Of a stretch of 64,000 bases of DNA, positions 43,140-52,211 are shown in pieces. Origin of the DNA: Acidobacteriota bacterium (GTDB lineage Bacteria; Acidobacteriota; Terriglobia; Acidiferrales; UBA7541); NCBI GenBank assembly GCA_013289955.1, contig JABCYZ010000025.1:1-64000 (forward strand), in the 5' to 3' direction. The first letter of the stretch is position 1. Every line of letters starts with the position of its first letter. The notes under the pieces were generated by a model, which was not told where the DNA came from, made no database searches, and saw nothing but the letters and a program-made list of their open reading frames with translations. The translations under genes were made by a program, and so were the position numbers.

Positions 43140-43448
43140 TGGCGATTGGCCCCGATGAAAAAGTTGTAGTCGCGCTGCGCCAGATGCTTGGGCAATCGAA
43201 GTCCCTATCAGCCCTATCAGGATGTTACTTCCCCGGTCGACGGGCGACGAAGATAAATCCAATGGAGGCGCTCAGGGACGAGTAGTCTCTGGTGGTTTCT
43301 CCCCGATCCGCCACGAATGGGACGATTATCGGAGACTACGCCACCAGATCAACCTGGGTCTCTACCGAAGCTCTCGCGGGCCCTCCCGTCGCTTGCCGCT
43401 TCCGCCCACTTTCGGCAGAATACCAGCCTGCCATCCAGGGAATGCAAA
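43140..43448. other. Divergent intergenic region, TonB receptor / DUF488 operon
   Basis: These 309 bases should hold promoters for both directions. Upstream in-frame extensions of both genes cross it but lack family similarity. No clear promoter pair or operator was identified. Confidence 0.35.
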
Positions 43449-44084
43449 GTGCCGCCTCCACATACCACTCCGGGCGCGATCTTCACCATCGGCCACTCAA
43501 ATCTCGACTTGGAGGATTTCGTTGCCGTCCTTGCCGGCCGCGGCGTCCATACCGTCTGCGACGTGCGCAGCCGCCCCGGCAGCTACCGCTTTCCCCAGTT
43601 CAATCGCGAATCGCTGGAGGCCTGTCTCGCTGCCTCAAAAATTCAATATGAATTTCTCGGCGAGGCTCTCGGCGGACGCCCTTCCGACCCGCGCGCCTAC
43701 CACTCGGACGGCATTGTAAATTACGAAGAGCGCCGCAAGGCCGCGGATTTTAGGGCCGGGGTGGATCGTGCGTTAGAGTTGGCCCGCGCCTCCAATATCG
43801 TTCTGATGTGCGCCGAGGAAGATCCCCTCGAATGTCATCGCTTCCTGATGGTCTGCCCCGCGCTGCTCGATCGCGGCGTTACGCCCGTGCACATTCGCCG
43901 TGGAGGTGCGCTGGAATCGCAGCGCGAAGCCGAAGACCTCCTTCTCAAATTGCATGACCTTACTGCTTTCGACAGCGGCTCTCTGTTCGTCTCGGAGCGC
44001 GATGCGGCCATCAGGGATGCGCTCCGCCTCCAGGCCAAGGAGTTTGCCTTCCGCGCGTCTCCGGAAGCCATTGAGTACTTCTGA
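43449..44084 (+). CDS. DUF488 protein, first copy
   Basis: A 211-residue DUF488 protein: FTIGHSNLDLEDFVAVLAGRGVHTVCDVRSRPGSYRFPQFNRESLEACLAASKIQYEFLGEALGGRP at the start and the conserved LMCAEEDPLECHRFLMVCPALLDRG motif (C-x-E...CHR). The tail from about 155 is extra. Biochemistry of DUF488 is not established; the invariant Cys-Glu-Cys-His-Arg set suggests an enzyme or metal site. The GTG at 43449 follows AGGGAA by 6 bases. It leads a four-gene overlapping operon. Confidence 0.85.
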   Translation: MPPPHTTPGAIFTIGHSNLDLEDFVAVLAGRGVHTVCDVRSRPGSYRFPQFNRESLEACLAASKIQYEFLGEALGGRPSDPRAYHSDGIVNYEERRKAADFRAGVDRALELARASNIVLMCAEEDPLECHRFLMVCPALLDRGVTPVHIRRGGALESQREAEDLLLKLHDLTAFDSGSLFVSERDAAIRDALRLQAKEFAFRASPEAIEYF

Positions 44085-44087
44085 TCT

Positions 44088-44597
44088 ATGGAATTTCTCC
44101 TTTGCACGATCGGATTCGCGGGAAAAACTGCCGAAGAGTTTTTCCGCCTCCTCAAGCAAGCCCAGGTGGAAAAGCTCATCGATATTCGGCTCAACCGGGG
44201 CGGCCAGCTTTCTGGTTTCGCCAAGCATCCGGACCTTGCATTTTTTCTGCAGAAGGTCGCCGGCATCGATTATTCCCACGAGCCGCAGCTTGCTCCGACC
44301 TCCGGCCTGCTCGACGCCTATCGCGACTCGCGGGATTGGGCTGCTTACGAAACTGGATTTCTGGGCTTAATGCGAGATCGCGGGGTCCCAGAAGCTTTCG
44401 ATGCGGGCATGTGGCCCGAACGAGCGGCGCTCCTTTGTTCCGAACCCGGTCCCGAGAAATGTCATCGTCGCCTCGCCGCCGATCTCCTTGCCGCGCATTG
44501 GCGGGAGCAAGGCCACAGCGTCGAGATTCGCCATCTCATCGGCGCCCGCGTGAAGCCTTCCAGACCGCCCCGCGCCAAGCCGAAATCCGCGCCATGA
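44088..44597 (+). CDS. DUF488 protein, second copy
   Basis: A 169-residue DUF488 protein with its own family start (FLLCTIGFAGKTAEEFFRLLKQAQVEKLIDIRLNRGGQLSGFAKHPDLAFFLQKVAGIDYSHEPQLAPT) and motif LLCSEPGPEKCHRRLAADLLAAHW. It differs greatly from the first copy, so the pair may form a heterodimer or handle two substrates (inference). It starts 3 bases after the first copy stops and ends in an ATGA overlap with the next gene. Confidence 0.87.
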   Translation: MEFLLCTIGFAGKTAEEFFRLLKQAQVEKLIDIRLNRGGQLSGFAKHPDLAFFLQKVAGIDYSHEPQLAPTSGLLDAYRDSRDWAAYETGFLGLMRDRGVPEAFDAGMWPERAALLCSEPGPEKCHRRLAADLLAAHWREQGHSVEIRHLIGARVKPSRPPRAKPKSAP

Positions 44598-45307
44598 CCC
44601 GGCTGCTCATCACCGAAATCACCCGCATGGGGCCGGCCTTCTGCGTCATAGGACTACAGCGTGAAAGCGGCAGAATTCGTTCCGTTCGTCCCGTTACCTC
44701 GACCGCCAACAGCTGGCTGCATTTCCCCTATCGCCGAGGGGACGTGCTGCGATGCGATCTCTCCCCTTTCTCCGGTGCCAAGCCGCACATCGAAGATCGT
44801 GTTACGGCGCATGGCTTTCAGAAAGAATTGGCTGTTCCCGAACCGGGGGTCGTTGCTTTTCTGCGCAGGGCGGAAATCGCGGGCTCTCTGGCCGATCTTT
44901 TCGGCTGCGCCATTCATGAAAACAGGAACGGCGGCGGACTGCATGCCAAGCCTCTCGAGCCGGTGCGTTCGATTTGCGGAACCGAGACCAAAAATCTTCG
45001 CTTCGAGCTTTGCGCAAACGAACCTCGCGCTACTCTGGTTCTTTCTTCGGGCGAGGTCTTGCGCGATCTTCCCGTCGTCGACCGCGATTGGCGCGGCTTT
45101 ATCGATGCCGCCCTGGCTGAGGCGAGAGGCGCGAATCGCGTTCATCGCCTCGAGCGCTTCCTGAACTCCCAATTCCATGACAAGGTCCTCTCTTGCCCGC
45201 ACCACTTCCTCCGTCTCGGACTTACTCGGCCTTATCATGATCTCTGCTGGCTTATGCTGGACACCTTGTTCCCGCTGCCTAAACAGGAATGGCTCGAGGA
45301 GTTTTGA
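44594..45307 (+). CDS. Dual-OB-fold-like protein paired with DUF488
   Basis: A 237-residue protein: TRLLITEITRMGPAFCVIGLQRESGRIRSVRPVT...WLHFPYRRGDVLRCDLSPFSGAKPHIEDRV, then a middle region and a C-terminal part SQFHDKVLSCPHHFLRLGLTRPYHDLCWLMLDTLFP with histidines and cysteines. The pattern resembles the dual-OB (DuOB) family seen beside DUF488 genes, recognised here from memory only. OB folds suggest nucleic acid binding. The ATG overlaps the upstream stop (ATGA) and the stop overlaps the next start (TGATG). The upstream ORF extension to 44102 is a shadow. Confidence 0.65.
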   Translation: MTRLLITEITRMGPAFCVIGLQRESGRIRSVRPVTSTANSWLHFPYRRGDVLRCDLSPFSGAKPHIEDRVTAHGFQKELAVPEPGVVAFLRRAEIAGSLADLFGCAIHENRNGGGLHAKPLEPVRSICGTETKNLRFELCANEPRATLVLSSGEVLRDLPVVDRDWRGFIDAALAEARGANRVHRLERFLNSQFHDKVLSCPHHFLRLGLTRPYHDLCWLMLDTLFPLPKQEWLEEF

Positions 45308-46593
45308 TGGCCCCCATCACGGATGAAAATGGCTGGCTGCGCCTGGTCCTGGAGTGCTTCCGCCGGGAAGCTGGCTCCGAAGCTCCCCTTCCCGATTCCT
45401 CGCTGGACCTTATCGAAACCGGCGCGCTGGACTCCATGGGCTGGGTCAGCTTTCTGCGGGCGCTGGAATCCGCCAGCGGCGTCAGCGATTTGGGGGCATT
45501 GCTCAGGGAGCAAACTCCGTCTTTGGAGAACACGTTTCTGGCCTTAAAAAACGCTCGATCCGGAAGCCCCTCTTCCGGGGCTGGTCCTTCCTCCAAACAC
45601 CAGCCCTTAACGCAATCCTCGGCCATTATTGCAAGCTCGGGCGCGGCCCTCGGCTCCCGCAAAATCCCTTCCGAGGAGGTTGACCGGGCCTTCGGCATGC
45701 CCGCCGGTAAACTTCGCCTTCGTGCCGGCATCGAATCGCTTGCTTATGCAGCGGAGGACGAAAATGAACTCACGCTCGGCGCGCGTGCCGCACAGCGGGC
45801 GCTTCGCGCTGCCGCTTGCGGCCCTCAAGAACTCGATTGGATTATCGCCACCACGGAAACCCATCGCAGTTACCCTTCGCTCGCCGCGCAGCTTCACTCT
45901 CAACTGCTCGCTCGCGAAACCTGCGGCGCCCTGGATGTCGGCGGCGCTTGTCTCGGTTTTGTGAATGCGCTCGCCGTCGCTCAAGGACTTATCGCGTCGG
46001 GACACGCCCGCACCATCGCCATAATCACCTCCGACGTCCATAGCCGCACTTTCAAGCCTGGCCGCGTGGCTGGAGAATTCGGCGGCTTGTTCGGCGATGG
46101 CGCCAGCGCATTTCTCTTGCGCGCAAAAAACGGCACCCGGCCACGGCCAGCGTACGGCCTCGGTGAATTTTTCTTTGGCTGTGCAGGGCAATACGCAGGG
46201 GCGATCCGCGTGGCGGACGCCCCCAACGGAAACATCGATGCGCACTTTGATGGAGAAGCTCTCTCGCGAGCGGCCATTACGAGGTTGGAAAAAGTGGTAG
46301 GAGACATCGAACTGCGCAGTGGCATCGCCCGGTCTTCGCTTCAAGGCTTGGCCACTCACCAGCCCAATCCGCGTCTTGTCACCCTGCTCGCGAAGCAGTG
46401 CGGTCTTCCGCTCGAGAAATTTCCAGTCGTCGCTCGCCACTTCGGCAACCTCGGCTCTTCCACTTGCGGAGTCGCCCTTGACGCGATTCTCGAGTCGGCG
46501 TCGAGTCTGCCGGCAGATAAGTGGGGTGCCATATTCACGGCATCCCTGGGTCCAGGCCTTCTTTTCGGCGGTGGATGGCTTGTTCCCGCTTAG
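45307..46593 (+). CDS. Acyl carrier protein - ketoacyl synthase III fusion
   Basis: A 428-residue fusion. Residues about 1-85 resemble a carrier protein with the phosphopantetheine serine in SSLDLIETGALDSMGWVSFLRALE, close to DltC- or PCP-type LLDSMG. A Ser/Gly-rich linker follows. From about 100 it is a KAS III (FabH-like) domain with an intact triad by motif: Cys in LDVGGACLGFVNAL, His in LATHQPNPRLV and Asn in RHFGNLGSSTCGVAL. It should condense an acyl chain on a carrier protein. GAGGAG precedes the ATG, which overlaps the upstream stop. A KAS III in a DUF488 operon is unusual. Confidence 0.85.
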   Translation: MAPITDENGWLRLVLECFRREAGSEAPLPDSSLDLIETGALDSMGWVSFLRALESASGVSDLGALLREQTPSLENTFLALKNARSGSPSSGAGPSSKHQPLTQSSAIIASSGAALGSRKIPSEEVDRAFGMPAGKLRLRAGIESLAYAAEDENELTLGARAAQRALRAAACGPQELDWIIATTETHRSYPSLAAQLHSQLLARETCGALDVGGACLGFVNALAVAQGLIASGHARTIAIITSDVHSRTFKPGRVAGEFGGLFGDGASAFLLRAKNGTRPRPAYGLGEFFFGCAGQYAGAIRVADAPNGNIDAHFDGEALSRAAITRLEKVVGDIELRSGIARSSLQGLATHQPNPRLVTLLAKQCGLPLEKFPVVARHFGNLGSSTCGVALDAILESASSLPADKWGAIFTASLGPGLLFGGGWLVPA

Positions 46594-46639: not shown

Positions 46640-46720
46640 TTCCCTGGGCTCACTCCTCAAGCTAAATTCCAAACATGCTCATAAATTAAAGAAAATAAAC
46701 ATGTTAGTCGGATGCTTCGC

Positions 46721-46737
46721 TTGGCTGCCTTCGTGCA
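46721..46737 (+). promoter_or_regulatory. Sigma54-like promoter of pseudopilin operon
   Basis: TTGGCTGCCTTCGTGCA has TTGGC and GTGCA with the GG and GC pairs exactly 10 bases apart, as in the sigma54 consensus TTGGCACG-N4-TTGCA. The predicted start site is about 40 bases before the FimT-like ATG. Pilin genes often use sigma54 in other bacteria. Confidence 0.5.
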
Positions 46738-46786
46738 CATCTCTGGGCGACTAAGACGGGATTTATCCCGGGGCAGAGGTGTAGGA

Positions 46787-47440
46787 ATGCAGCGAAGAAG
46801 CAAGAGAGCGCAGCAAGGATTCTCACTGGTCGAGTTGGTTACCGTCGTCGGGATTACCTTTGTCCTGGCGAGTATGGCCGTCATGTCGACAAGAAGTTCG
46901 ACATACGCCTCACGGGCCAATGATGCCATGTTCCAAGTCATCTCCCAACTGCGGACCGCGCGCGAAATTGCAGTGACCAAGCGCCGCAACGTGCTGATCA
47001 CGTTTGGCGCCCCAAACCAGATCCAGATTGCGGTCCAGACGCTCCCGGGCGAGACGGCGCCGGCCGCCATGGCACCGGTTTTCCTGAACGACGGAGTGCC
47101 CGGTGGCTGCACTTTTTACGTTTATCCGGGACTGCCCGACACACCCATGGGATTCGGCAATTCGAGCGCACTTACCTTCGCTCCCGCGAGCGGCGGGACC
47201 TCAGGCCTTGCCATCATGTTCAGCACCTCAGGTAGCCTGGTCGGAACCACAGGCGGCTCCGGTTACAGCACAGTTGGGAATAACAATCCGGTCAACGCAT
47301 CGATCTTTACCGGCATTGCCGGCCAGCCCAATACCGCGCGCGCTGTCACTGTCATGGGAGCCACCGGGCGCGTCCGCTCGTATTCCTGGACTGCGGGAGC
47401 GACGGGCGGCACGGTCCTGAATTGGCAAGAAGAGCAGTAG
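46787..47440 (+). CDS. FimT/GspH-like minor pseudopilin
   Basis: A 217-residue prepilin. The leader MQRRSKRAQQG and processed end FSLVELVTVVGITFVLASMAVM have the PilD cleavage site (G/F) and Glu at +5. The region ANDAMFQVISQLRTAREIAVTKRRNVLITFG is typical of FimT/GspH. The C-terminal part is a Gly/Ser/Thr-rich globular domain. The ORF begins at 46712, but 46787 gives a normal leader. It heads the pseudopilin operon. Confidence 0.88.
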   Translation: MQRRSKRAQQGFSLVELVTVVGITFVLASMAVMSTRSSTYASRANDAMFQVISQLRTAREIAVTKRRNVLITFGAPNQIQIAVQTLPGETAPAAMAPVFLNDGVPGGCTFYVYPGLPDTPMGFGNSSALTFAPASGGTSGLAIMFSTSGSLVGTTGGSGYSTVGNNNPVNASIFTGIAGQPNTARAVTVMGATGRVRSYSWTAGATGGTVLNWQEEQ

Positions 47441-47455
47441 GAGAGAAGCCCATTT

Positions 47456-48007
47456 ATGAAAACACAGCGCAAACGTTCGCGACACCTGGCCGGCTTCACG
47501 CTTCTTGAAGCCATGATCTCAATCTTCGTACTGACCTTCGGCGTCTTATCGCTGGCCGCGGTCTACGCCCAAGGCATCTTTTTCGCCAGCCTCTCTCAAT
47601 ACGACTACGTAGCCGAGAAGAAGGCCGAACAGGCTGTGGAAGCTATCTTCACGGCCCGCGACATCAAGCAGCTGACCTGGGCTTCCATTCAAAACGTCAG
47701 TAACAACGGCGTTTTCCTCGATCCCCCGCAGCCCATCCTGGTTCCCGGCACGGACGGCCTCGTGGGGACGGTGACGGATCAGGGCTCCGCGGATGAAGTC
47801 ATCACCATCGGCCCCGGCCCTGACGGAATTCTCGGTACGGCCGACGACCAGGTCGTCGACCTGAATCCCTGGATGAAACGCACCATCGCGATTTCCGCTG
47901 TGACCGGCGAGACGAACCTTCGCATGATCACCGTCACCATCACCTATCAGGTTGGCAAGATGAGTCGCAACTACACGCTGATCAGCTACATCTCAGCGTT
48001 CGCCTAG
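47456..48007 (+). CDS. PilV/GspI-like minor pseudopilin
   Basis: A 183-residue prepilin with leader MKTQRKRSRHLAG and helix FTLLEAMISIFVLTFGVLSLAAVYAQG (Glu at +5). The helix continues as YDYVAEKKAEQAVEAIFTARD, the PilV/GspI style. It contains PGPDGILGTADDQVVDLNPWMKR, a D-rich loop that may bind calcium (inference). The stop is 8 bases before the next start. Confidence 0.88.
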   Translation: MKTQRKRSRHLAGFTLLEAMISIFVLTFGVLSLAAVYAQGIFFASLSQYDYVAEKKAEQAVEAIFTARDIKQLTWASIQNVSNNGVFLDPPQPILVPGTDGLVGTVTDQGSADEVITIGPGPDGILGTADDQVVDLNPWMKRTIAISAVTGETNLRMITVTITYQVGKMSRNYTLISYISAFA

Positions 48008-48014
48008 AGAGCTT

Positions 48015-49161
48015 ATGAGGACTTTGGACATGAAGAAACAATCTGGGTTCACGCTAGTCGAATTCTCAGTGGCCATGGCCATCACCTTGGTCTCCCTGCT
48101 GGCTACCGTCATGGCCTTGAATGGCCACGTATTCAAACCAGAACGTCACCCAGCGCGAAGATATGGCCGACAACATCCGCGCCGGCCTGAACCTTCTCGA
48201 GCAGGACGTCATTATGACCGGCATGGGCGTTCCAACTGGCGGCATTACGATCCCGAGTTTCACCGCCACGACGGCTTGCCCGGGCGGCACTTCCAATCTG
48301 GCTCGTCCGCTCCCGACCGGAACAGGTACCTTTCCTATCTGCAACACGACCTTGCCGGCCATCGAACCTGGCAATGCCCTGGGGCCCTTCATCACCGCCC
48401 CGGACGCCACCTCGAGCGTGAACACCGACATTCTTACGGTCGTCTACGCGGACAACACTTCCAGCTCCACTTCCACCATCATCGGCATGAACGCCCAGCC
48501 CATCAACGGCACAAGCTGCCCCCTTGGCACCATCTCGGCTACCGGGAATTCCGTTACCTTTGACTCCAGCTGCTTCAACCTCACGAGCCTCGCTGCAAGC
48601 GGCGTACAGATCAATCCCGGCGATCTGATCATGTTCAGCAATACGAATGGCAAGGCTCTTCAGCTGGTCACGAGCGTGTCCGGCCAAACGCTGGGTTTCG
48701 CTTCCGGCGACGCTTTCCATCTGAACGGGATCACCAGCGCCGTGGGCGGCACGATTAAACAGCTCCAGAATTCCACCGTCAATGGCACGACCGGCGTTGT
48801 CACCTATCTTGGCACTTATCCGCAAACATCGGCCACGCGCATTTGGATGGTTTCCTACTGGCTTGATAACGTGACCGACCCCATCCACATCCGCCTCGAT
48901 CGCGCAGTGAATTTCAACGCGCCGCAGCCGGTGGGAGAGACTCTCGAGAATCTGCAATTCACTTTCAATTTCAATGACGGCATCGCTGTGAACCAACTCA
49001 CCGTTCCCACGGGCTACTCCGAAAGCCAGATTCGCTCCGTGAATCTCTTTATGAGCACGCGCTCGACCAGCATGCTCGGCCAGACGAAACAGTACGCCCG
49101 TGAAAATTTCCAGACGCAGCTCAGCCTTCGCAGCATGGCCTACGTCAACCGGTATCAATAA
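48015..49161 (+). pseudogene. PilW-like pseudopilin gene with a one-base frameshift
   Basis: The gene begins in one frame (48015 or 48030: leader MKKQSG, then FTLVEFSVAMAITLVSLLATVMAL, Glu at +5) and continues in another from 48121 (ATYSNQNVTQREDMADNIRAGLNLLEQDVIMTG). Removing one A from TTGAATGG near 48120 joins the two into ...VMALMATYSNQNVTQRED..., the usual PilW layout. So either one extra base is present (mutation or sequencing error) or translation shifts. Frame one otherwise runs into unlike sequence up to 48563. Neighbouring pseudopilins are intact, so an error in the assembly is plausible. Confidence 0.8.
48121..49161 (+). CDS. PilW-like pseudopilin body, lacking its helix in this frame
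   Basis: The 346-residue ORF holds the PilW globular part (MADNIRAGLNLLEQDVIMTGMGVP...FNFNDGIAVNQLTVPTGYSESQIRSVNLFMSTRS). As read it lacks the leader and hydrophobic N-helix coded just upstream in a different frame, so it could not be assembled into a pilus unless the frames are joined. An in-frame TGA lies directly before the ATG at 48121. The stop overlaps the PilX-like start (TAATG). Confidence 0.75.
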   Translation: MATYSNQNVTQREDMADNIRAGLNLLEQDVIMTGMGVPTGGITIPSFTATTACPGGTSNLARPLPTGTGTFPICNTTLPAIEPGNALGPFITAPDATSSVNTDILTVVYADNTSSSTSTIIGMNAQPINGTSCPLGTISATGNSVTFDSSCFNLTSLAASGVQINPGDLIMFSNTNGKALQLVTSVSGQTLGFASGDAFHLNGITSAVGGTIKQLQNSTVNGTTGVVTYLGTYPQTSATRIWMVSYWLDNVTDPIHIRLDRAVNFNAPQPVGETLENLQFTFNFNDGIAVNQLTVPTGYSESQIRSVNLFMSTRSTSMLGQTKQYARENFQTQLSLRSMAYVNRYQ

Positions 49162-52100
49162 TGAGGAGCCTTATCATGAATGCCCCGAATAGACAGATGC
49201 GACGCGATTCCGGCATCGCCCTGCTTACCACCCTGTTGCTTATGCTTCTCATGTCCAGCCTGCTGGTTGGCTTCGTCCTGCTCATCAGTTCCGGACAGAA
49301 GCTGAGCGGCTACAACAACGACTACAGCAAGGCTTTTTATGCAGCCGAAGCCGGCATGGAGAAGTTGACGGCGGACATTGGCACGCTCTTCGACACGAAC
49401 TATTCGCCTACTGGCACCCAGATCAACGCCCTCACAACTACTCCTCCGGGTCTCGCCGGCATCAACTACGTCCAATACAACGGGGCCAGCGGCTACAATA
49501 TTTCTTTTCCGGCGGACTCCAACGGCAACCCTCTCGCCACCACCAATGTGATTGATTCGGGTGCGTATGAAGGTATGACGGCGCTCCAGACCCTCTACAC
49601 TCTCAATGTGACGGCACGCACGACCTCCGGCTCCGAGGTGAAGCTGCAGCGCACCACCCAGACCGTCGGCATCCCGATGTTCCAGTTCGGCGTCTTTTCC
49701 AGCACGGACCTCAGTTTCTTTCCGGGCCCATCCTTTAGTTTTGGCGGCCGCACCGCTACCAACGGCAACCTGTTCCTCGCTACGAGCGGCGGCCCTCTAT
49801 CCCTTACCGAGCCCGTCAGCGCCTATCTGAACGTTATCCGCACCAACCTTTCCAATGGCTTTCCCACCGCCAGCTCGTATAACGGCCCCGTCAACGTTTT
49901 CAACGGCAGCGGCACACGGCCCCTGGCTTTGACCGAGGGCAGCCTGGTAGGCACAATCGGGTCCGCCACTAACTCCAACTGGCCTACTATCTCTCTGGGC
50001 AGTGCCGACTATGCCGGCAACTTGCGGAATGGCGCCACCGGCGCGAACCAGCTGAATCTTGGCATTGTGCTGCTAGGGAACGGCACCACGCAGCCTGTCG
50101 ACATGATCCGCCGTCCCTTTGGCACCACGGAGAGCGCGTCCGTCACCAACCTGCGCTATTTCGCGCAAGCCAGTCTTCAGATTCTGTTGTCGGATAACCC
50201 GACCGACATTATGTCGCTCCCTTGCGTTGATACGGGCACGCAGCCGGTTAACCTGGCTCAACTTGCTTCTCCCGTTTCCACCTGGACGGGACTGGGAGGT
50301 AATCCAGCGGCTCTTTACACGAAAATGAACTCCAACAACACGGCGGGGTACAGCACGCTTCCCGTGCCGCTGGCAGCATCGGGAGCGGTAATGAGTGCCA
50401 CGGCTTACAGCCCGGGTGGTACCGCCACACTCAATGGAAACGGCTACTGGTTGCCGAATCCCGGCGGCACCGGCTTCACCACCGCATCCGGTCTGCCCGT
50501 CATAAAGGGCTACATCAAAATCGAAGTGCAGACTGCTTACGGCAATCCCTGCGGCACTTGGAAGGACGTGACGATCGAGGTCTTGGGCTACGGCTATGCA
50601 GGCCGCAATATCTTCCCTCAGGGGGGCCTCGTAGGGTCACAGTACGGCACTTCTGAACCACTGTTGCCGCCGCCAACGAGCCAAGTAGCGTCTCCCTACA
50701 GCGCAGGCTTCACCTGCCCGACAGACGTACATCCAAACGCGATCATCCGCCTGGAGCGTGTTCGTGATAACCCGTCTAACTATGGGACGCAAGGTCCATG
50801 CGGCATAACCATCACCGCCGGCAAAGTTACTGCTGCCCCGGCGAACCCCGCCGATTATTGGCCGAACGCCCTCTTTGACACTCGCGAGGGCAACTCACGC
50901 GACATCATCCCTGCCGGCAGTATTGGCGGCGGCGCTAATGTCATTAACTATTCGCAGATGGTTACCCTCGGCGGGGTCATGCAATACATCGAACTCGATG
51001 CCAAGAACCTGGCAGCTTATTTCGCCGGCACGGGCGTCTACACGGGCGGGTCTGGCCACCTGGCCTATGACGGCGTTACCGCCCCTAACGATTACACCGT
51101 ATACATCTCCGACCGCCGCGGCAACTATACAGCGTCCGCACTCACGAACGTCTGGCCTCCGCTCTCGCCGAGCGGTCATGAGACGGGCGAGTACGGCTGG
51201 AATGACTTCGTAAACCCCCTCAGCGCCTACGGGTGCCCCAACAATACCCAAGATACCGGAGAAGACCTCGACGGCTTGGGCACGACAGGTTTCTACAACT
51301 ATGGAGCGAACCCGACCTACATCATGGACGCTGGCGCAGTAACCACGGGTATGACCCTGGCCACTGTGAACACAACCCTGGGCTTCGGACAATACGGAAT
51401 GTTTGGTCTGGCCAGCCCCGGCAATCTTTACGGCGCAAGCACCACCGCCAATGCTATAACAGCCAATCCGAACTGCACGGTTACCGTGCCTTCCACCATC
51501 TGGCCTTGGGCTGAGGTTATCCACGCGAATGAAGCGCGCGAAAATCCCAACCCCTTCTTCCGCAGGGCCGTAAAAGTGGTGGACGGCAATCTCTTGAGTG
51601 CCCTTGGCACTTGCCCGGGAGGGGTTCCTTGCGGCTTAGCGATTGCCACGGAGAACCCGGCGTATATTCAGGGCGACTTCAACGCCAACGCCGCCGGCGA
51701 AGGTTTCGACGACGCCACAAACGTAGCGGTTTCTGTGAACGCCGACGCGTTGACGCTGCTCTCGAACAACTTCAACGACGTGAACAGCTTCGCCTTTCCC
51801 TACGTGACGTCGAACACCCAGCGCAATGCCGTAACCACTTATTTCCGGACCGCCGTGATGGCTGGCAAAGGAGTCTCTTTTCCGCAACCCACGACCTGCG
51901 GAACGGTGGCTTGCTACGCGGACTTCGGCACCGATGGCGGCGTCCACAACTTCCTGCGCTTTCTCGAGGACTGGGGTGCCAATGGCGGTCAGACCCTGTT
52001 CTACCGCGGCTCGATCATCAGCATGTATTACAACCGCCAGGCCGTCGGCACGTACAAGGACGGCCTATCCAACACCGTCTACCAACCGCCAACACGCGGC

Positions 52101-52211
52101 TACAACTTTGATACGGAGTTCCTGACTCCTTCTCTTTTGCCGCCGCGCACGCCGCTCTTCCGCGACGTGAACACCACGGGCTTTACGCAGCTTCTTCTGC
52201 CTAGTCAGTAG
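49161..52211 (+). CDS. Very large PilX-like minor pseudopilin
   Basis: A 1016-residue protein with a PilX N-terminal segment: leader ending in RRDSG, helix IALLTTLLLMLLMSSLLVGFVLLIS (no Glu at +5, as in PilX/GspK tip proteins) and NDYSKAFYAAEAGMEKLTADI. The remaining 900 residues are Gly/Asn/Thr/Pro-rich with few cysteines and no family I recognise. Usual PilX proteins are about 150-400 residues. The large domain could be an adhesin or replace PilY1 at the pilus tip (inference; no pilY1 is near). A terminator hairpin follows. Confidence 0.82.
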   Translation: MRSLIMNAPNRQMRRDSGIALLTTLLLMLLMSSLLVGFVLLISSGQKLSGYNNDYSKAFYAAEAGMEKLTADIGTLFDTNYSPTGTQINALTTTPPGLAGINYVQYNGASGYNISFPADSNGNPLATTNVIDSGAYEGMTALQTLYTLNVTARTTSGSEVKLQRTTQTVGIPMFQFGVFSSTDLSFFPGPSFSFGGRTATNGNLFLATSGGPLSLTEPVSAYLNVIRTNLSNGFPTASSYNGPVNVFNGSGTRPLALTEGSLVGTIGSATNSNWPTISLGSADYAGNLRNGATGANQLNLGIVLLGNGTTQPVDMIRRPFGTTESASVTNLRYFAQASLQILLSDNPTDIMSLPCVDTGTQPVNLAQLASPVSTWTGLGGNPAALYTKMNSNNTAGYSTLPVPLAASGAVMSATAYSPGGTATLNGNGYWLPNPGGTGFTTASGLPVIKGYIKIEVQTAYGNPCGTWKDVTIEVLGYGYAGRNIFPQGGLVGSQYGTSEPLLPPPTSQVASPYSAGFTCPTDVHPNAIIRLERVRDNPSNYGTQGPCGITITAGKVTAAPANPADYWPNALFDTREGNSRDIIPAGSIGGGANVINYSQMVTLGGVMQYIELDAKNLAAYFAGTGVYTGGSGHLAYDGVTAPNDYTVYISDRRGNYTASALTNVWPPLSPSGHETGEYGWNDFVNPLSAYGCPNNTQDTGEDLDGLGTTGFYNYGANPTYIMDAGAVTTGMTLATVNTTLGFGQYGMFGLASPGNLYGASTTANAITANPNCTVTVPSTIWPWAEVIHANEARENPNPFFRRAVKVVDGNLLSALGTCPGGVPCGLAIATENPAYIQGDFNANAAGEGFDDATNVAVSVNADALTLLSNNFNDVNSFAFPYVTSNTQRNAVTTYFRTAVMAGKGVSFPQPTTCGTVACYADFGTDGGVHNFLRFLEDWGANGGQTLFYRGSIISMYYNRQAVGTYKDGLSNTVYQPPTRGYNFDTEFLTPSLLPPRTPLFRDVNTTGFTQLLLPSQ

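What the first reader, a model, noticed from the sequence alone, without database searches (positions are those of the whole stretch)
43449..46593. Four-gene overlapping operon: two DUF488, a dual-OB-like protein and an ACP-KAS III fusion
Seen: gene junctions of 3 bases, ATGA and TGATG, so the four proteins are made as one unit. Both DUF488 copies keep the C-x-E...CHR motif yet are otherwise very different. The third protein looks like an OB-fold (nucleic acid) protein. The fourth is a complete carbon-carbon condensing enzyme with its own carrier domain. A fatty-acid-type synthase joined to DUF488/OB proteins is unexpected and could be a nucleic-acid or nucleotide modification or defence-like system that uses an acyl group. 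The function is inference.
Basis: partly seen in the sequence, partly recalled or inferred. Interest (0 to 1): 0.78.

Follow-up and report, generated by a model that had tools for sequence, protein, structure and literature searches.

The report
DUF488-DUF488-DuOB operon with ACP-KASIII fusion
In soil Acidobacteria, a known three-gene cassette of predicted nucleic-acid proteins is joined in one operon to a fatty-acid-type condensing enzyme that carries its own acyl carrier; the carrier part comes and goes with the cassette, which suggests, but does not prove, that the two work together.

Summary
Window 43449-46593 holds four tightly coupled genes: two DUF488 proteins, a divergent dual-OB (DuOB) protein, and ACP fused to KASIII. 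The first three are a divergent form of a module already catalogued in PADLOC as phage-defence candidate PDC-M45. On plasmids and in other Acidobacteriota that module lacks KASIII. In the window's own lineage (Gp2 Acidobacteria), 13 genomes in three genera with a DuOB gene also carry ACP-KASIII; junctions are direct wherever contigs allow. A decayed 14th has lost the ACP core. KASIII also persists alone in about 20 relatives, under purifying selection, but then without the ACP (one exception keeps it). On the KASIII tree the ACP and the cassette change state together at least five times. The ACP therefore belongs to the cassette, and the KAS domain is a resident gene. KASIII is a FabH paralogue with an intact Cys-His-Asn triad; a normal fabH lies elsewhere. 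The locus is a stable chromosomal place next to the isc genes, with no defence genes found nearby. The best reading is a domesticated PDC-M45-like cassette functionally coupled to a condensing enzyme. Acylation of nucleic acid is possible but unsupported. New variant of a known kind.

The parts
43375..43424 (+). Conserved promoter-like block (GCTTGCC...TTTCGGCAGAATACC) just upstream of the first DUF488 gene; shared by cassette-bearing relatives
   Evidence: blastn similarity to the same place in L051, L052, L054, L055; not found by the simple sigma-70 scan
43449..44084 (+). DUF488 protein 1 (PDC-M45B type), 211 aa, GTG start, C-x-E-x5-C-H-R
   Evidence: Pfam PF04343 E 3e-22; PADLOC PDC-M45B E 1e-53; motif kept in all 14 aligned rows
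44088..44597 (+). DUF488 protein 2 (PDC-M45C type, DUF488-N3a 'active' subclade), 169 aa
   Evidence: Pfam PF04343 8e-15 and PF22751 3e-7 over cut-off; PADLOC PDC-M45C 6e-49
44594..45307 (+). Divergent dual-OB (DuOB-like) protein, 237 aa
   Evidence: Intermediate-sequence link to PF22557; AF2 pLDDT 81 and Foldseek top hits HIN-200 tandem OB
45307..45600 (+). N-terminal ACP-like domain of gene 4 (residues 1-85 plus linker), Ser43 in DSM
   Evidence: D-S-[ML] kept in all long forms; four helices predicted; PF00550 only 13.4 bits against cut-off 20.8
45607..46593 (+). KASIII (FabH-paralogue) domain of gene 4; Cys215, His351, Asn381
   Evidence: PF08545/PF08541 over cut-off; triad invariant; Foldseek E. 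coli FabH E 3e-26

Best explanation
This is a lineage-specific, chromosomally fixed variant of the DUF488-DUF488-DuOB module (PADLOC PDC-M45). Its 3' end is translationally coupled to a resident KASIII gene and, in practice, includes an ACP domain fused to that KASIII. Shown by sequence: operon structure, domain content, intact active-site motifs, conservation across three genera, and joint presence or absence of cassette and ACP while the KAS domain persists. Inferred mechanism: the DuOB protein binds a nucleic acid or nucleotide target and the two Cys-based DUF488 enzymes (rhodanese/phosphatase superfamily) process it. The fused ACP, once phosphopantetheinylated, feeds malonyl or acyl groups to the KASIII in cis, so that its condensation product stays on this protein and is tied to the cassette. 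Without the cassette the KAS domain works as an ordinary KASIII with the free cell ACP. What the acyl product does for the cassette is not known; the least demanding idea is a dedicated small acyl metabolite or a supply switch, not acylation of DNA.
For: Same gene order in G029, G038, G026, G017, G027, G013, G018, G033, G035, G094. All 13 genomes with a good DuOB match also have ACP-KASIII; in G019 and G051 the genes are split between contigs. About 20 genomes with KASIII but no DuOB have no ACP; the one exception is G049. On the KAS tree the short form needs 7 changes, at least 5 on strongly supported branches, and the cassette goes the same way in 4.7 of 5 independent pairs and never the other way. 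G014 is decaying: gene 1 frame-broken, gene 2 gone, ACP core with DSM deleted, KAS intact. Pairwise protein distances of the four genes correlate, r 0.72-0.80. dN/dS 0.07-0.22 for all four genes. The gene-3 fold matches tandem-OB DNA-binding domains.
Against: ACP and cassette are contiguous, so one deletion or exchange removes both and the co-variation may be physical, not functional; the sign test reaches only p = 0.0625 on supported branches. KASIII survives without the cassette under purifying selection. The same cassette elsewhere has no KASIII. No known chemistry links a beta-ketoacyl product to DUF488. G037, G010 and G040 keep one DUF488 gene with a short KAS. The ACP domain falls below the Pfam cut-off.
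Confidence: 0.5

Rival explanations
1. Neighbours only: a resident FabH-paralogue gene of lipid or secondary metabolism, into whose upstream region a PDC-M45-type cassette settled. They share a transcript but not a function, and the ACP is just the KASIII's own carrier, lost whenever a deletion or exchange took the 5' part of the locus.
For: KASIII occurs alone in about 20 relatives, with its own conserved upstream segment; it is under purifying selection there. The cassette occurs without KASIII on plasmids and in other Acidobacteriota. In G026 versus G007 a single contiguous 2.46-kb block (cassette plus ACP) is replaced by 0.42 kb. An M20 peptidase follows KASIII with or without the cassette.
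Against: No genome was found with an intact DuOB of this clade and a KASIII without ACP, across several independent changes. The TGATG overlap between DuOB and ACP-KAS is kept in most intact operons over 57-77% protein identity.
Confidence: 0.33
2. One reading: an acyl-dependent nucleic-acid or nucleotide modification or defence system in which ACP-KASIII makes the group that DUF488/DuOB place on a nucleic acid.
For: DuOB resembles DNA-binding tandem OB folds; related cassettes sit on mobile plasmids near CRISPR accessory, restriction and TcmP/DUF5131 genes; PADLOC lists the DUF488 pair as a defence candidate; the operon is coupled.
Against: None of 10 flanking genes hits PADLOC; the locus is a stable syntenic place by the isc genes; no transferase that would attach an acyl group to nucleic acid is present; KASIII is dispensable to the module elsewhere.
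Confidence: 0.1
3. The KASIII is an acyltransferase of the CerJ/ChlB3 kind, moving an acyl group from its ACP onto an OH or NH group, rather than a condensing enzyme.
For: ACP fusion; the Trp of FabH's DEWI motif, which I take as the CoA adenine-stacking Trp32, is absent; such acyltransferases share the fold (PMC9573744).
Against: CerJ and ChlB3 use Cys-His-Asp (PMC9573744), whereas here Cys-His-Asn of condensing enzymes is invariant; the best structural matches are FabH.
Confidence: 0.05

Closest known systems
PADLOC phage-defence candidate PDC-M45 (DuOB + two DUF488; the kind of system I recall from Burroughs & Aravind 2023, NAR Genom Bioinform lqad029, rhodanese-phosphatase superfamily; that paper could not be read here, but its existence and title are confirmed in the reference list of PMC12419801)
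   Same: Both DUF488 subtypes match PDC-M45B and C strongly; a DuOB-type third gene; tight operon; active-site motif in both DUF488 proteins
   Different: Third protein too divergent for PDC-M45A or PF22557; gene order B-C-DuOB instead of the usual A-B-C; fourth gene ACP-KASIII; stable chromosomal place rather than plasmid or defence context
FabH / beta-ketoacyl-ACP synthase III (TIGR00747)
   Same: Fold, Cys-His-Asn triad, full length
   Different: 126.9 bits against a cut-off of 292.1; N-terminal ACP; no DEWI Trp; a separate canonical fabH is in the genome
CerJ/ChlB3 KSIII-like acyltransferases
   Same: KSIII fold, use of an ACP-bound acyl group
   Different: Cys-His-Asp triad there, Cys-His-Asn here
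HIN-200 tandem OB domains (IFI16, p204, MNDA)
   Same: Best structural match of gene 3, about 239 aligned columns, probability up to 0.99
   Different: TM-score only about 0.36, E 3e-3, sequence identity about 10%: a fold resemblance, not membership

Membership tests
PDC-M45 (DuOB-DUF488-DUF488 module) | Adjacent DUF488 proteins of types B and C | tested here: met
   PADLOC E 1.1e-53 and 6.3e-49
PDC-M45 (DuOB-DUF488-DUF488 module) | DuOB protein matching PF22557 / PDC-M45A | tested here: inconclusive
   No direct hit for P0003. G094 homologue DuOB E 0.038 and L141 intermediate E 7e-11, linked to the P0003 profile at 7e-5; tandem-OB fold predicted
PDC-M45 (DuOB-DUF488-DUF488 module) | Context of mobile elements or defence genes | tested here: not met
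   No PADLOC hit in 10 flanking genes; conserved synteny by the isc genes across the genus
PDC-M45 (DuOB-DUF488-DUF488 module) | Protection against phage | not testable with these tools
   Needs an experiment
DUF488 | C-x-E...C-H-R active-site motif | tested here: met
   Kept in all aligned homologues of both genes, one C-T-E variant in G037 still fitting C-x-E
KASIII superfamily (ACP_syn_III and C-terminal domain) | Both Pfam domains over cut-off; Cys-His-Asn triad | tested here: met
FabH (TIGR00747) | Score over the curated cut-off | tested here: not met
   126.9 bits against 292.1; canonical fabH at G000:C12 scores 384
Acyl carrier protein | PP-binding domain over cut-off; D-S-[LM] attachment site at helix II; four helices | tested here: inconclusive
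   PF00550 13.4 bits, below 20.8; DSM/DSL invariant in the aligned long forms; four helices predicted with Ser43 at the start of helix 43-57
CerJ/ChlB3 acyltransferases | Cys-His-Asp triad | tested here: not met
   Asn381 invariant; triad of CerJ/ChlB3 from PMC9573744

The most novel reading that the evidence does not exclude
The ACP-KASIII is a true fourth component: its ACP-bound beta-ketoacyl product is used by the DUF488/DuOB complex to modify nucleic-acid ends or a nucleotide signal, which would be the first carbon-carbon condensing enzyme wired into a nucleic-acid-processing or defence module.
Probability: 0.1. Interest if true: 0.88.

Novelty: new variant of a known kind. Interest (0 to 1): 0.5.

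Why it matters
DUF488/DuOB modules are widespread on plasmids and in genomes and have no proven chemistry that I know of. A lineage in which such a module is welded to an enzyme of known chemistry, and in which the carrier domain switches with the module while the catalytic domain stays, gives a natural experiment and a biochemical handle (acyl-CoA and malonyl-ACP use) for asking what these modules do.

Tried and rejected
Housekeeping fabH: rejected, because a canonical fabH is elsewhere in the genome and in nearly all relatives. Defence island: no PADLOC hits around. Chance adjacency: rejected by conservation in three genera. Structured RNA or riboswitch: no Rfam match. Simple sigma-70 promoter scan: nothing above shuffles. 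Profile comparison of P0003 with PDC-M45A proteins by hhalign: no significant match (0.2% probability); homology rests on the L141 intermediate and the fold. KASIII of this subfamily outside the family-level lineage: only generic KASIII at 33% identity or less. Plasmid searches with P0003 and the L141 DuOB: no match; phage search with P0002: no match. Fresh simple deletions as the origin of all short forms: not sufficient, because short forms of one clade share a homologous upstream segment while the cassette genes of G024 and G026 are as diverged as their flanks; old alleles, tandem-copy resolution or recombination remain open. The first ORF call missed gene 3 (antisense artefact); later counts used tblastn. 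The reference paper on the DUF488 clade is not in the library.

Full report
Observation. The four ORFs and the junctions (3 bp, ATGA, TGATG) are exactly as described. Genes 1 and 2 are DUF488, 25% identical to each other, both with C-x-E-x5-C-H-R. They are the only DUF488 genes found in this genome. Gene 3 has no direct family match. Gene 4 has an N-terminal ACP-like domain with D-S-M and a full KASIII domain.

What the first three genes are. PADLOC's PDC-M45B and PDC-M45C models match genes 1 and 2 at 1e-53 and 6e-49. In other Acidobacteriota (L133, L135, L137, L129, L147) and on plasmids of Allochromatium, Rhodovastum and Agrobacterium, two DUF488 genes sit with a DuOB (PF22557) gene; Klebsiella and Acinetobacter plasmids have DuOB, one DUF488 and a DUF4326 gene. 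The window's gene 3 is a remote DuOB. A profile of its eleven relatives finds the DuOB-like protein of L141 (E 7e-5), which itself matches PF22557 at 7e-11; the G094 relative touches PF22557 at 0.038. The AF2 model (pLDDT 81) has HIN-200 tandem-OB DNA-binding domains as its six best PDB matches, at modest scores (E 3e-3, TM about 0.36).

What gene 4 is. It is a divergent FabH paralogue: both Pfam KASIII domains are over cut-off, but it scores far under the NCBIfam FabH cut-off. A canonical fabH is elsewhere in the genome (384 bits). Cys215, His351 and Asn381 are invariant in forms with and without ACP, which is the condensing-enzyme triad and not the Cys-His-Asp of CerJ/ChlB3 (PMC9573744). The Trp of the FabH DEWI motif is missing. 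Structural matches are FabH enzymes. Matches with at least 45% identity were found only in the window's own family-level lineage; record titles call several of these subdivision-2 (gp2) Acidobacteria.

Neighbourhood in relatives. The locus is a stable chromosomal place near the Fe-S cluster genes (IscA, HscB, HscA, Fdx, IscX, named by me from the translations, with HSP70 and Fer2 confirmed), then a bacterial PH-domain protein, a Bax-inhibitor-like protein, an HD_4 protein and usually an inverted TonB-type receptor. The four-gene order is intact in the window and ten other genomes. In two more (G019, G051) contig ends split it.

Presence and absence. KASIII is present in most genomes of the genus. 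Where the DuOB gene is present and intact, KASIII begins with the ACP domain. Where it is absent, KASIII lacks it, except G049 of another genus, which has ACP-KASIII without the cassette. G014 is an intermediate: broken gene 1, no gene 2, complete gene 3, an in-frame deletion of the ACP core including the DSM motif, KAS intact. G024 keeps both DUF488 genes but has lost most of gene 3 and all of KASIII. G010 and G040 keep only gene 1, and G037 only gene 2 in the stretch held, each with a short KASIII.

Tree. On the tree of the KAS domain, cassette-bearing and cassette-free genomes are interleaved: the short form needs seven changes, at least five on strongly supported branches. Independent pairs agree in direction (4.7 of 5 on average, none opposite), with a sign test of 0.0625. 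G026 (full) and G007 (short) are close relatives: flanking genes are about 94% identical in protein, and one block of 2.46 kb carrying cassette and ACP is replaced by 0.42 kb. Short forms of that clade share a homologous upstream segment, and full forms share a different conserved block before gene 1. The 5' half of the locus therefore behaves as a block that is lost or exchanged, with the ACP inside the block and the KAS domain outside it. Which of loss, recombination or old alleles is at work is not settled.

Selection. dN/dS is 0.07-0.22 for all four genes and 0.12-0.15 for short-form KASIII. The one close pair that straddles a change (G026-G007) has 0.34. Distances of the four proteins correlate at r 0.72-0.80.

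How it most likely works. Shown: one coupled operon with intact catalytic motifs, preserved by selection, with ACP and cassette varying together. Inferred: DuOB binds nucleic acid or nucleotide, the DUF488 pair processes it with its cysteine sites (my recollection of the RapZ-C-DUF488 clade paper, whose title is confirmed), and ACP in cis lets the KASIII make and hold a beta-ketoacyl group for the cassette. The last step is the weakest. The main rival is mere neighbourhood, because one contiguous block explains the joint changes and both halves exist separately elsewhere.

Verdict. Real, conserved and unusual, but built from known parts: a new variant of the PDC-M45 type joined to an ACP-KASIII. 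Acyl modification of nucleic acid is open and unsupported.

Noticed in passing
L058:8522-9718, L059:4936-6132, L060:2163-3362, L061:5204-6361, L074:8278-9468: An M20-family peptidase/deacylase gene follows KASIII in five genomes of three genera, overlapping it by ATGA in three; it goes with KASIII whether or not the cassette is present, so it may be a further partner of KASIII.
   Followed up: partly
G026 (L053) against G007 (L067), G008 (L066), and upstream segments of short-form KASIII: Cassette plus ACP is replaced as a block at near-identical borders, and short forms share their own homologous upstream segment, which hints at repeated allelic exchange rather than fresh deletions.
   Followed up: partly
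L180, L182, L183: DuOB-DUF488 cassettes on plasmids lie beside csx16/csm6, TcmP and DUF5131, or a NotI-type restriction system; Klebsiella and Acinetobacter plasmids carry a DUF4326 gene after a single DUF488 gene.
   Followed up: no
L129:5652-8091: One acidobacterial genome (G473) carries a classical DuOB, two DUF488 genes and then a second, frame-broken DuOB of the window-like L141 type.
   Followed up: partly
L086 (CAJCHZ010000050.1): Record titled Betaproteobacteria holds the acidobacterial locus with 72% identity and the same synteny; the organism label is probably wrong.
   Followed up: no
window 46712-52211: Downstream minor-pilin-like genes (N_methyl, PilX_N) are in only six of the examined loci at this place; others carry a different gene set there, so this is a variable cargo site.
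   Followed up: no
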